Source of the DNA: Thermoflexus hugenholtzii JAD2 | GTDB taxonomy: Bacteria > Chloroflexota > Anaerolineae > Thermoflexales > Thermoflexaceae | Reading direction: 5' to 3' | Length of the DNA stretch: 64,000 nucleotides | Assembly: GCF_900187885.1 (NCBI RefSeq) | Contig: NZ_FYEK01000044.1 | Location: 62,001 to 126,000 of the forward strand | Shown: positions 55,255-62,829 of the stretch, in pieces | How positions within the stretch are numbered: the first letter of the stretch is position 1 | Layout: every line of letters starts with the position of its first letter | The notes under the pieces: model-generated | Databases searched by the model: none | The model's input: only the letters and a program-made list of their open reading frames with translations | What the model was told of the DNA's origin: nothing | Position numbers and translations under genes: made by a program

Positions 55255-55310
55255 AAACCTTCCGCGGACCCCCATGGAAAATCCGGCCACCGGGGGTCCG
55301 CGGAAGGTTT
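55255..55310. terminator. Large perfect hairpin, terminator-like
   Basis: AAACCTTCCGCGGACCCCC (55255-55273) pairs without mismatch with 55292-55310 around an 18-base loop, followed by GTTT. It probably ends the PLP enzyme transcript and insulates the CRISPR leader. A half copy of the arm recurs at 55423-55437. Confidence 0.75.
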
Positions 55311-55422
55311 GTTTAATGAGCCTTTAGAATCCACCATTCTTCTCCCATTCAGGAAGATGATGGTTTGATTTATGCCCGAAACGAGATATTTAGATGAGCA
55401 AGATGCCTTTCTTCGGAAAAGG

Positions 55423-55437
55423 CTTCCGCGGACCCCC
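55423..55437 (+). repeat. Third copy of the hairpin arm
   Basis: CTTCCGCGGACCCCC repeats 15 bases of the left arm of the 55255 hairpin, 150 bp downstream and just before the CRISPR leader. The matching right arm is absent. Confidence 0.5.
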
Positions 55438-55439
55438 CT

Positions 55440-55568
55440 TCGTCCTCTGGCGCATGGAGGAACCCGAACCCCTTGACAACCAACGCGTCCTGTGTTATAT
55501 TCATGGCGAACTGGATGCAGGAAAGGGTAGCTCTCTCTCTTCTCCCTCTCACCGCCTGAAATCGCAGG
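55440..55568 (+). promoter_or_regulatory. CRISPR leader with promoter (TTGACA-N17-TATATT)
   Basis: TTGACA at 55473-55478, a 17-bp spacer and TATATT at 55496-55501 point into the array; the transcript would begin near 55508. A pyrimidine-rich tract (TCTCTCTCTTCTCCCTCTC) lies just before the first repeat. The perfect repeats at this side and the mutated ones at the far end confirm that this is the leader. Confidence 0.85.
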
Positions 55569-58500
55569 GCCTCAATCGAACCAGCGTGGGATTGAAACAA
55601 AGGCCAGTTCTCCCTTGTCGCGATAAAAGGCGGGGCCTCAATCGAACCAGCGTGGGATTGAAACCGTGATCCATCAAGGTCCACTTCTGGGCGGAAAAGC
55701 GCCTCAATCGAACCAGCGTGGGATTGAAACTTTGCTGCGCGCTGTTGCCGCGTAGTCGTGCGACCCGCCTCAATCGAACCAGCGTGGGATTGAAACACCG
55801 CTGTGGGGGTCCGGGGGGCGAAGCCCCCCGGGGGCCTCAATCGAACCAGCGTGGGATTGAAACGACGGCAATGGCCGCAAATAGAGAACCACCTTGGGGA
55901 GCCTCAATCGAACCAGCGTGGGATTGAAACCAGAGCAGCAAGCATCCATCTCGACCAACTTCCACCCGCCTCAATCGAACCAGCGTGGGATTGAAACCAT
56001 GGCCGTCTGAAATGCGGCGCGCTGCGCGATGTTGGCCTCAATCGAACCAGCGTGGGATTGAAACTTGCCTCCTCCTTGCGAGGTCTGGAACAAACAAAGC
56101 CGCCTCAATCGAACCAGCGTGGGATTGAAACTACAGCTCTGGGTGAGCGTCCAGAACCACCACATGCCGGCCTCAATCGAACCAGCGTGGGATTGAAACC
56201 GAAGAGCGTTTTGCCCTCCACGCCCATCTTGCGGAGGCCTCAATCGAACCAGCGTGGGATTGAAACAATGGAGGGCCGCCTGCATCAAGCATCTGCGTTC
56301 GTGCCTCAATCGAACCAGCGTGGGATTGAAACAGTGAATCTTCAAAACCGGGATCTCTACCGTGTAAATCGCCTCAATCGAACCAGCGTGGGATTGAAAC
56401 GTTATCCAACACGTGCATAAATTCATGCACATTCCACGCCTCAATCGAACCAGCGTGGGATTGAAACTGGAGGCCCAGATCCGGAAGGCCTTCATCAAAA
56501 CCCGTGCCTCAATCGAACCAGCGTGGGATTGAAACATTTGCCTTGTCTTCATTGGCCTTTTGTGGGCAAGCCCGCCTCAATCGAACCAGCGTGGGATTGA
56601 AACAGGGGCCCTCCAGGATCCTCTCGGCTGAGGGATCGGGCCTCAATCGAACCAGCGTGGGATTGAAACACCTTGGCGACTACTGCAACCTTGCGGATGT
56701 GATCCGCCTCAATCGAACCAGCGTGGGATTGAAACTCTCTCCCCCCTCCTCTTTGGATTTAGCCCGGCCTTCGCCTCAATCGAACCAGCGTGGGATTGAA
56801 ACCATCCCGGGCCCGGGCCCAGCCCGGCTCCGGCAGCGTGCCTCAATCGAACCAGCGTGGGATTGAAACTGCCTTCCCCCTCATACCCCCAGTTCAGCCG
56901 GACCAAGCCTCAATCGAACCAGCGTGGGATTGAAACAGGTCTTGTGCTCCGCAGTCCACCCGGGGTTGATCCTGGCCTCAATCGAACCAGCGTGGGATTG
57001 AAACCCTGGCCAAAAAGGCCAGGGGCCCAAAGCCAAGGGGGCCTCAATCGAACCAGCGTGGGATTGAAACTCTTTTTGTTTTTAATTTGTCCCTCCGCCG
57101 GCGCGAAGCCTCAATCGAACCAGCGTGGGATTGAAACATCCACCCGCATCGAAGCCATCGCCGTGCAACTCAAAGCCTCAATCGAACCAGCGTGGGATTG
57201 AAACAACGGCGTCGTGATAGAGGATACTTACATCACGCTGAGCCTCAATCGAACCAGCGTGGGATTGAAACCCCGTGAGATCATAGTATTCATCGGAGAA
57301 CCAAGAGGCCTCAATCGAACCAGCGTGGGATTGAAACCAAAAGCGCCGCCCTCGCGGCGGGCGGCAGCGGAAACGCCTCAATCGAACCAGCGTGGGATTG
57401 AAACGGATTTCCCCTGGCCGGGCCACCGGCTGGCCCGGAACGGCCTCAATCGAACCAGCGTGGGATTGAAACGGCACAGTCACGAGGAACCCGGACAAAA
57501 AAGATATTGGCCTCAATCGAACCAGCGTGGGATTGAAACATCCCTCGCGGCGGGGGCCGCGTTGGATCGGGATCGGGCCTCAATCGAACCAGCGTGGGAT
57601 TGAAACCCGGAACGGCCGGCTTCGCCATGGCGCCCCCTCTCCGCCTCAATCGAACCAGCGTGGGATTGAAACGCCATGGGCCAGGAGGGCGATATAGCGC
57701 TCTAGACACGCCTCAATCGAACCAGCGTGGGATTGAAACGCAATATCGGCTGCCCGGTCACGAAGGCCTTGACATAGCCTCAATCGAACCAGCGTGGGAT
57801 TGAAACTTTCGCACAGCAACTTCCCCGGATCTCTCTGCCGGACTGCCTCAATCGAACCAGCGTGGGATTGAAACCCACATGCGGCGCGGAGGGGCATTGC
57901 CCGATACCCTGCCTCAATCGAACCAGCGTGGGATTGAAACAGTCTTGGGCTCGGTGCCCCGATTGTGGTGAAAATTATGCCTCAATCGAACCAGCGTGGG
58001 ATTGAAACCCAGGAGGCCGGGAATGTCTTCCCGGCTCACCGGGTGGCCTCAATCGAACCAGCGTGGGATTGAAACTTCTGTTATTCGGTTGGACTGACAA
58101 ATCCAGCGATTGCCTCAATCGAACCAGCGTGGGATTGAAACGGCTTTGTGGTCGTTGATGTAAACCTCGTTTACGGCTTGCCTCAATCGAACCAGCGTGG
58201 GATTGAAACGATTTCGGCTGGCTGCATCCCAAGACCTCGGGGAAGGGCCTCAATCGAACCAGCGTGGGATTGAAACTATGGGGTTCACTCCCTGATTTTC
58301 CCTCCCCCTCAGCCTCAATCGAACCAGCGTGGGATTGAAACCAGCTACCGCCTCGACAGGGCTCCAGCCCCACCAATGCCTCAATCGAACCAGCGTGGGA
58401 TTGAAACGAAATATTTGCCACCTTTGAGCAGAAACTCATCAATGCCTCAATCGAACCAGCGTGGGATTGAAACAAATAGCAACAAACAAAATCACTATTT

Positions 58501-61214
58501 GTTCGGTCCAAGCCTCAATCGAACCAGCGTGGGATTGAAACTGGCTTGGGTAAACGAGAACATATGGAAGCGGATCAGGCCTCAATCGAACCAGCGTGGG
58601 ATTGAAACGGCGGGTCATTTCCCCGGGCGGGAATCGAACCCGCCAGGCCTCAATCGAACCAGCGTGGGATTGAAACTCACGAAGTCGTCCTCCACCCCTT
58701 CGGGCGGGAAGGCGCCTCAATCGAACCAGCGTGGGATTGAAACCTGGGTCCGGGCGTATTGGCGCGCTCACTGGGAGCTGCCTCAATCGAACCAGCGTGG
58801 GATTGAAACACCCTTGGCCCGGATGCGGGCCTCGGTCCGGACCGGCCTCAATCGAACCAGCGTGGGATTGAAACGGCCGATCCGCCGCCTGCGGCTGCGG
58901 CGATTGTCTTGCCTCAATCGAACCAGCGTGGGATTGAAACATCACGCGCGTGGACATCCGGCGGATGTATCGACTCGCCTCAATCGAACCAGCGTGGGAT
59001 TGAAACCTCGGATGTTGACGAGGATCTGAGAGATCGGGAGGTGCCTCAATCGAACCAGCGTGGGATTGAAACGGCGGACGTTTTCAACCGTGTCGGCGGC
59101 TACTTCGAGCCTCAATCGAACCAGCGTGGGATTGAAACCCAGATCTTCCATCGGGCTATCCCTCCGGCAGGATGGGCCTCAATCGAACCAGCGTGGGATT
59201 GAAACATCATTTCGGCGGCGGAGCTCGAGGGCAAGGAGTTCGCCTCAATCGAACCAGCGTGGGATTGAAACGCATCCACGAGGAATGTTCGAGCAGATGG
59301 GACTGGCGTGCCTCAATCGAACCAGCGTGGGATTGAAACTGGCTTGGGTAAACGAGAACATATGGAAGCGGATCAGCCTCAATCGAACCAGCGTGGGATT
59401 GAAACTACACGCTGTTCATAATCCGCTTCCAGAACTGAGCGCGCCTCAATCGAACCAGCGTGGGATTGAAACTATTGGACACAGGGATCGCGAAAGGGCA
59501 CGAGGATCTGCCTCAATCGAACCAGCGTGGGATTGAAACGGCCAAAGCGTTGGGGGGGGCCATCAAAATTCATCTTGAGCCTCAATCGAACCAGCGTGGG
59601 ATTGAAACTTCTCTGCGCCGCCAGGCGTGCGTTACCGGGCGCGATGCCTCAATCGAACCAGCGTGGGATTGAAACCCTTAACGATCCTCCCGTGTTTGCT
59701 GACCAGCCCCAGGCCTCAATCGAACCAGCGTGGGATTGAAACCTATGTCAAGGCAATGGACCTGTTGAAGGAGGAGGTGGCCTCAATCGAACCAGCGTGG
59801 GATTGAAACCCATGGCGGCCTTCAACAAGTTTTCGGTCGTAGAATTGCCTCAATCGAACCAGCGTGGGATTGAAACAACTTCATCTTGAGAAGAAGATTG
59901 CTGAGGGCTACTGCCTCAATCGAACCAGCGTGGGATTGAAACTCCGCCATGGCGACCTTCAACAGGTTTTCCGCCGTGGGCCTCAATCGAACCAGCGTGG
60001 GATTGAAACCGCGCCCCGCCCCGGGCGGCGCGGATCAGGTATTCGGGCCTCAATCGAACCAGCGTGGGATTGAAACGAATCACCAGAGGAGTGGTCGTCA
60101 TGGCTTATCCCTGGCCTCAATCGAACCAGCGTGGGATTGAAACCGTGGGCCGCCCGGGCCAGCAGCATGGTCCGCTGGAGCCTCAATCGAACCAGCGTGG
60201 GATTGAAACCGGAGGAGGGCCTGGCGCGGCTGCGGGAAGGCGCTGGGCCTCAATCGAACCAGCGTGGGATTGAAACTCGCCCGCCGCGGGACGGCCCTGG
60301 CGGACTACCTGGCCTCAATCGAACCAGCGTGGGATTGAAACTCGATCTCCTCCCGAAGCCGCTGCGGGCGGATACGCGCCTCAATCGAACCAGCGTGGGA
60401 TTGAAACCGCTTCTGGATTAACCCCACCTTAGATCGCGCCCGCGCGCCTCAATCGAACCAGCGTGGGATTGAAACGATCCCCGCCGCCTACGACGAGGCC
60501 CGCCGGGACGGGGCCTCAATCGAACCAGCGTGGGATTGAAACCCGACGCGGCCGCCGAGGCCGCCGCGGCCATGGTGGGGCCTCAATCGAACCAGCGTGG
60601 GATTGAAACCCCAGAAGCAGGCCGCCTGTGGCCAGGGCCAGCCGGGCCTGCCTCAATCGAACCAGCGTGGGATTGAAACCGTCCCCCCCGTGATCTACCG
60701 CCGCTACGAGAAGGAGGCCTCAATCGAACCAGCGTGGGATTGAAACCCCAAATGCCTTCCAGCGTGCAGTGATCCCCATCCTCGCCTCAATCGAACCAGC
60801 GTGGGATTGAAACTTTCAACCAGTCGACGGAATAACCAGATACACGGTGAGCCTCAATCGAACCAGCGTGGGATTGAAACCAGCCCATCCCGGACCCCCG
60901 CCCAGAACCGGAGCCAGCCTCAATCGAACCAGCGTGGGATTGAAACGTCATCTCGGGGGGAACCAGAGTGGCCGCGAGGAGGCGCCTCAATCGAACCAGC
61001 GTGGGATTGAAACATGATCACAATGATCTCCCCGTTCTGCCTCAGAGTGGGCCTCAATCGAACCAGCGTGGGATTGAAACCAAAGCCCACCACGCTGTCG
61101 TGGATCGCGTATAATGTGCCTCAATCGAACCAGCGTGAGATTGAAACCAGGGGGTTGCCAGGTAGAGGGCGCCGCTCGGAAACAGCCTCAATCGAACCAG
61201 CATGGGATTGAAAC
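55569..61214 (+). CRISPR. CRISPR array, 85 repeats of 30 bp and 84 spacers
   Basis: I counted 85 repeat starts from 55569 to 61185. The repeat is 30 bp, begins GCCTCAATCGAACC and ends GTGGGATTGAAAC, giving the ATTGAAAC 5' handle usual for types I and III crRNAs. All copies look identical except the last two, which each carry one G-to-A change (61118-61147 and 61185-61214). Spacers are 35-40 bp, mostly 36-38. No cas gene is in the window, so type cannot be set. Open reading frames along the array in both strands encode only repeat-derived peptides. Confidence 0.98.
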
Positions 61215-62264: not shown

Positions 62265-62387
62265 ATGCGGAAGACCTGGATCCTGATCCTGGCGGCGGCG
62301 CTGGCCCTGGCCCCGGGGGCCGGCGCCGCCCGGGCCGAGGGGGATGGCCTCAATCGAACCCGTGTGGGACTGAAACCCGGGCGCTGA
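62265..62387 (+). CDS. 40-residue ORF: signal peptide running into a degenerate CRISPR repeat
   Basis: ATG with GGGGAGG upstream encodes a clear signal peptide (MRKTWILILAAALALAPGAG then ARAEG, cleavage near residue 24). The next codons are the degenerate repeat at 62347-62376, translated as GLNRTRVGLK, and the frame stops nine bases later. It looks like the 5' end of a secreted-protein gene cut short by the repeat; expression is possible but function is doubtful. Confidence 0.5.
   Translation: MRKTWILILAAALALAPGAGAARAEGDGLNRTRVGLKPGR
62347..62376 (+). repeat. Stray degenerate CRISPR repeat 1
   Basis: A 30-bp copy of the array repeat with three mismatches (AACCCGTGTGGGACTG in place of AACCAGCGTGGGATTG), 1.13 kb beyond the last array repeat and in the same orientation. 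Confidence 0.85.
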
Positions 62388-62774: not shown

Positions 62775-62804
62775 GTCGCCTCAATCGAACCAACTTTAGG
62801 ATTA
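62775..62804 (+). repeat. Stray degenerate CRISPR repeat 2
   Basis: The first 15 bases (GCCTCAATCGAACCA) match the array repeat exactly; the remainder (ACTTTAGGATTAGAA) is decayed but keeps GGATT at the right place. Same orientation as the array. Confidence 0.65.
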
Positions 62805-62829
62805 GAAGGAGTGAGGGCCCTTCTGCGCT

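What the first reader, a model, noticed from the sequence alone, without database searches (positions are those of the whole stretch)
58542..59375. Same protospacer present twice with different spacer lengths
Spacer 45 (58542-58578, 37 bp) and spacer 57 (59340-59375, 36 bp) share the same 36 bases starting TGGCTTGGGTAAACGAGAAC; they differ by one base at the 3' end. A segmental duplication would copy the length too, so two separate acquisitions of one target with slightly different trimming are more likely. That means the invader returned after the first spacer was in place.
Basis: partly seen in the sequence, partly recalled or inferred. Interest (0 to 1): 0.7.

Follow-up and report, generated by a model that had tools for sequence, protein, structure and literature searches.

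The report
One viral target captured twice
A bacterium's CRISPR memory holds the same 36-letter snippet of an unknown invader at two places, and the one-letter difference at one end shows it was most likely captured twice, not copied, an uncommon but known event.

Summary
Spacer 45 (58542-58578, 37 nt) and spacer 57 (59340-59375, 36 nt) share 36 identical bases from the 5' end; spacer 45 has one extra 3' G. They are the only such pair among 84 spacers here, and neighbouring spacers are not duplicated. The leader is on the 5' side, so 57 is older and 11 spacers lie between the two. I could not find the protospacer in any collection searched. The evidence therefore comes from comparing 637 spacers from five genomes of the genus. 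(1) Overlapping spacers show a 5'-CCN PAM directly before the spacer start (8 of 9 cases, p about 5e-8), so the 5' end is PAM-anchored. (2) Diverged pairs that must be separate captures keep the same start and differ in 3' length (36/37, 36/37, 39/35). (3) True duplications in the genus (13 pairs) are tandem or block copies and always keep their length. The cas genes are type I-B with Cas4. Best explanation: two independent acquisitions of one PAM-defined protospacer, with variable trimming at the PAM-distal end. That the invader came back after 57 was in place is likely but not shown. A new member of a known, rarely documented kind.

The parts
55427..55568 (+). Leader region of array A, on the 5' side; new spacers enter here
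   Evidence: 96% identical to the sequence before the second array (G000:C3) and 76-77% identical to the leaders of both arrays of same-genus genome G004. Degenerate repeats lie only at the other end
55569..61214 (+). CRISPR array A: 85 repeats of 30 nt, 84 spacers
58542..58578 (+). Spacer 45, 37 nt; the younger copy
59340..59375 (+). Spacer 57, 36 nt; the older copy, identical to the first 36 nt of spacer 45
58579..59339 (+). Repeats and the 11 unrelated spacers 46-56 between the two copies
59810..59846 (+). Spacer 64: diverged relative of spacer 66, same target region
   Evidence: 27 of 31 identical to spacer 66, start shifted by 4 nt; the bases before its start, as read in spacer 66, are CCG
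59943..59979 (+). Spacer 66: diverged relative of spacer 64

Best explanation
Spacers 45 and 57 are two independent captures of the same protospacer by the genome's type I-B adaptation machinery (Cas1-Cas2-Cas4). The cut on the PAM side is fixed by a 5'-CCN motif, so both spacers start at the same base. The PAM-distal cut varies by a few bases, so one spacer is 36 nt and the other 37. Spacer 57 was captured first. After at least 11 further captures, the same unmutated protospacer with its PAM was captured again as spacer 45. This most likely happened during interference-driven (targeted) acquisition from an invader that spacer 57 already matched. Shown: the sequences, the order, the PAM-anchored start in the genus, the variable 3' length, and that real duplications keep their length. 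Inferred: the identity of the invader, the return visit, and the interference-driven route.
For: Single separated copy, no duplicated neighbours. Of 84 spacers, lengths 36 and 37 make up 66; two random captures differ in length with probability 0.64. Overlapping spacers in the genus reveal CCN right before the spacer start in 8 of 9 cases (binomial p 4.7e-8; CC frequency 0.093), so the 5' end is PAM-anchored. Diverged pairs with the same start score 17 or more 3 times within arrays (229/244 in G004: 36/37; 56/91 in G008: 36/37; 89/134 in G004: 39/35) against 0 in shuffles, and all differ in 3' length. The 13 exact duplicate pairs in the genus are tandem singles or blocks and all have equal length. 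The three pairs in the whole survey with an identical core but different length all differ at the 3' edge, none at the 5' edge. Cas8b, Cas7b, Cas5, Cas3b, Cas4b, Cas1b identified; in relative G008 orthologues of this operon lie next to an array with the identical repeat. [quoted passage not shown] I-B adaptation in Clostridioides difficile uses CCN and yields 34-40 bp spacers (PMC8406132).
Against: No protospacer was found, so the PAM and the 37th base of the target could not be checked. In a large survey 86% of duplicate-spacer candidates were duplications and only about 1% reacquisitions (PMC11472070), so the general prior is low; I did not see that survey separate copies of unequal length. 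A separated block copy does occur in the genus (G004 spacers 225-227 = 233-235), so separated copies can arise by duplication plus deletion. Two adjacent pairs elsewhere (L124, L128) differ by one 3' base, and if those are duplications with an indel, such indels are not negligible.
Confidence: 0.85

Rival explanations
1. Duplication with decay: unequal recombination between repeats copied block 45-56, most of the second copy was then deleted, leaving one spacer, and one G was lost at the GG junction between spacer and repeat.
For: Tandem and separated block copies exist in the genus (G004 194-196=197-199, 225-227=233-235; second array 4-6=7-9). Duplications far outnumber reacquisitions in a published survey (PMC11472070). 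Loss of one G from GG is an easy mutation.
Against: Needs two or three events. All 13 exact duplicate pairs in the genus kept their length, including three in G004 that end in G before a G-starting repeat. The 85 repeats here show no indel, only two substitutions at the old end.
Confidence: 0.09
2. Two captures in different cell lineages, brought together by recombination between arrays, so that the invader need not have returned to an already immunised cell.
For: The array type is multi-copy in the genome, with identical repeats and near-identical leaders, so inter-array recombination is mechanically possible.
Against: No other spacer is shared between the two arrays of this genome. Recombination between arrays is described as rare (cited in PMC11472070).
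Confidence: 0.03
3. Assembly or strain-mixing artefact: a short-read assembly joined two variants of one spacer.
For: The genome is a 78-contig draft, and repeat-spacer-repeat units are hard for short reads.
Against: Each copy has its own unique spacers on both sides, and a simple assembly duplication would be identical. The array lies inside a 254 kb contig.
Confidence: 0.02
4. Self-capture: spacer 45 was taken from the array's own spacer 57.
For: Would give an identical sequence with a floating 3' end.
Against: The bases before each spacer in the array are AAC (end of the repeat), not the CCN motif found in this genus.
Confidence: 0.01

Closest known systems
Spacer reacquisition / independent insertion events catalogued by SpacerPlacer (PMC11472070)
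   Same: The same spacer appears twice in one array through separate insertions
   Different: That catalogue infers such events from array alignments and finds them in about 1-2% of duplicate candidates. Here the cue is unequal 3' length at an identical PAM-side start, within a single array
Independently acquired overlapping spacers in Sulfolobus islandicus (Held et al. 2010, PMC2946923)
   Same: Separate captures from one region of one virus, recognised by spacer-spacer matches
   Different: Most of those are offset and lie in different strains; here both copies sit in one array with the same start
Variable spacer length in type I-F adaptation of Pectobacterium atrosepticum (PMC5059440)
   Same: Length variants come mainly from an imprecise PAM-distal cut at a correct PAM
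   Different: Type I-F, 32/33 nt, PAM on the 3' side; here type I-B, 36/37 nt, PAM on the 5' side
Type I-B adaptation of Clostridioides difficile (PMC8406132)
   Same: CCN motif and acquired spacers of 34-40 bp
   Different: Shown by experiment there; inferred from overlapping spacers here

Membership tests
Type I-B CRISPR-Cas | Cas8b large subunit with Cas7b, Cas5 and Cas3 | tested here: met
   G000:C71 operon: Cas8b 2.9e-124, Cas7b 3.2e-69, Cas5, Cas3b 2.6e-124
Type I-B CRISPR-Cas | Adaptation genes cas1 and cas4 in the operon | tested here: met
   Cas1b 1.8e-128 and Cas4b 4.5e-44; cas2 was not looked for
Type I-B CRISPR-Cas | This array's repeat belongs to that operon | tested here: met
   No cas gene was identified next to the array here, but in relative G008 an operon with 75-90% identical proteins lies next to an array with the identical 30-nt repeat. 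The type III-A locus on C27 has its own array with a different repeat. The link is by association, not by experiment
Type I-B CRISPR-Cas | 5' PAM of CCN type | tested here: met
   8 of 9 overlap-derived motifs in the genus; not checked on a real protospacer
Independent reacquisition of a spacer | No duplicated neighbours | tested here: met
Independent reacquisition of a spacer | Acquisition-type difference at the PAM-distal end only | tested here: met
   Identical start, 36 vs 37 nt at the 3' end, as in diverged same-start pairs
Independent reacquisition of a spacer | Protospacer with PAM in an invader | tested here: inconclusive
   No match in IMG/VR, GTDB contigs, phage or plasmid records, or 100 relatives
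Segmental duplication | Copied unit has the same length, or neighbours are copied too | tested here: not met
   Length differs and neighbours are unique

The most novel reading that the evidence does not exclude
Recapture of an identical, PAM-defined protospacer is a regular outcome of targeted acquisition in long type I-B arrays. It acts as a booster at the leader end and is under-counted, because survey tools either treat same-length copies as duplications or treat copies of unequal length as different spacers.
Probability: 0.25. Interest if true: 0.5.

Novelty: new member of a known kind. Interest (0 to 1): 0.3.

Why it matters
Models that read infection history from spacer order assume each spacer is acquired once. 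A length mismatch at the PAM-distal end, with an identical PAM-side start, is a simple mark that separates recapture from copying in a single array. The side result, a CCN motif read from overlapping spacers without any known virus, is useful for this genus, whose viruses I could not find in the collections searched.

Tried and rejected
Finding the target: exact, half-length and synonymous-codon patterns in IMG/VR, GTDB contigs, phage and plasmid records by blastn, own genome and 100 relatives, and about half of the array's spacers (32-73) against 9 genus genomes. Nothing convincing turned up. Five IMG/VR contigs with the peptide WVNENIW belong to an unrelated 310-319 aa protein family and do not match the rest of the spacer. 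Patterns for other overlapping pairs (64/66, B32/B56, G004-29/G001-12) also found nothing. A possible link of spacers 57 and 58 (shared TGGAAGCGGAT on opposite strands) is not above chance in this array and was dropped.

Full report
What is there. The window holds a CRISPR array at 55569-61214 with 85 repeats of 30 nt and 84 spacers. Spacers 45 (58542-58578, 37 nt) and 57 (59340-59375, 36 nt) share the same 36 bases from their first base; only the last G of spacer 45 is extra. The match is far above chance (score 36; best of 20 shuffled arrays 16) and the neighbours of the two copies are unrelated.

Direction. The sequence before 55569 is a leader. It is 96% identical to the one before a second array of the same repeat on contig C3 and 76-77% identical to the leaders of both arrays of a closed genome of the same genus, G004. 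Degenerate repeats occur only at the other end. Spacer 57 is therefore older than spacer 45, and 11 spacers lie between them.

Machinery. No cas genes were identified next to this array; the genome's two cas1 loci are on other contigs. One is a type I-B operon with Cas8b, Cas7b, Cas5, Cas3, Cas4 and Cas1 on C71. The other is a type III-A locus on C27 with its own array of a different repeat. In relative G008 the orthologous I-B operon (75-90% identical proteins) lies next to an array with the identical repeat, so the I-B machinery is the likely owner of this array.

Target. No protospacer was found in the genome, 100 relatives, IMG/VR, GTDB contigs, phage records or plasmid records. The test of the interpretation therefore rests on comparison of spacers with each other.

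PAM side. Across 637 spacers of five genomes of the genus, 15 non-identical spacer pairs (45/57 among them) match with a score of 17 or more; ten sets of dinucleotide-preserving shuffles gave none. Where the start of one spacer lies inside the other, the three bases before the start can be read. They are CCN in 8 of 9 cases (CCA, CCC, CCG, CCT; one CTT from a diverged opposite-strand pair), p about 5e-8. So spacers in this genus start directly after a CCN motif, as in Clostridioides difficile type I-B (PMC8406132), and the 5' end of a spacer is fixed by the PAM.

Length side. Pairs with the same start but substitutions must be separate captures from related viruses. Within arrays these are 229/244 and 89/134 in G004 and 56/91 in G008, with lengths 36/37, 39/35 and 36/37. 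Exact copies in the genus are 13 pairs in about six events, all tandem singles or blocks, all of equal length. Three of these copies end in G before a G-starting repeat, the same junction as here, and kept it. In a wider set of 2096 spacers from other organisms, identical-core pairs that differ in length do so only at the 3' edge (L124, L128). Work on type I-F found that an inaccurate PAM-distal cut is the main source of length variants (PMC5059440).

Weighing. Two random captures in this array differ in length with probability 0.64. After a duplication a one-base change exactly at the 3' edge is rare: 0 of 13 in the genus, at most 2 of about 21 in all. Separate same-start captures are at least as frequent in the genus as separated copies (three within-array pairs against one separated block). 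A published survey gives a low general prior for reacquisition (PMC11472070), though copies of unequal length may not have been counted there. I put independent acquisition at 0.85; this weighing is a judgement, not a formal calculation.

What remains open. That the invader returned after spacer 57 was in place follows if both captures happened in one lineage and if spacers 46-56 do not all come from the same infection. Neither point is shown. Self-capture from the array is unlikely because the bases before a spacer there are AAC, not CCN.

Verdict. A well-supported case of recapture of one protospacer. The kind of event is known and described as rare; the mark used here (same PAM-side start, unequal far end) is simple and could be applied widely.

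Noticed in passing
window 59810-59846 and 59943-59979: Spacers 64 and 66 target the same region of related invaders (27 of 31 identical, start shifted by 4 nt). The base triplet before the start of 64, as read in 66, is CCG.
   Followed up: yes
L035 7535-12068 (G000:C3:92534-97067): A second array with the same repeat and leader, with 67 spacers. Its spacers 32 and 56 overlap by 24 nt on opposite strands. No spacer is shared with the window's array.
   Followed up: partly
window 62347-62376 and about 62779-62808: Two solitary decayed repeats lie 1.1 and 1.6 kb beyond the array, with coding sequence between, as if the old end of the array had been broken up or invaded.
   Followed up: no
L195 (G004:C1:2176000-2195999): Array of well over 250 spacers in a closed genome of the same genus. 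The first base of the repeat is mostly T near the leader and G at the old end, so the repeat changed during the life of the array.
   Followed up: partly
L195 spacers 194-199 and 225-235; L207 spacers 4-9: Block duplications of three spacers, tandem in two cases and separated in one, all with exact lengths.
   Followed up: yes
L123 spacers 26 and 32 (Chloroflexi bacterium S1bins104): Two 36-nt spacers that are perfect reverse complements of each other over the full length: the same protospacer inserted in both orientations.
   Followed up: no
L128 spacers 33/34 and L124 spacers 6/7: Adjacent spacers with an identical core that differ by one base at the 3' edge: either consecutive recapture or duplication with slippage.
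   Followed up: partly
window 55257-55450: A strong hairpin (CTTCCGCGGACCCCC / GGGGGTCCGCGGAAGG) and a third copy of one arm precede the leader; the same arrangement precedes the second array on C3.
   Followed up: no
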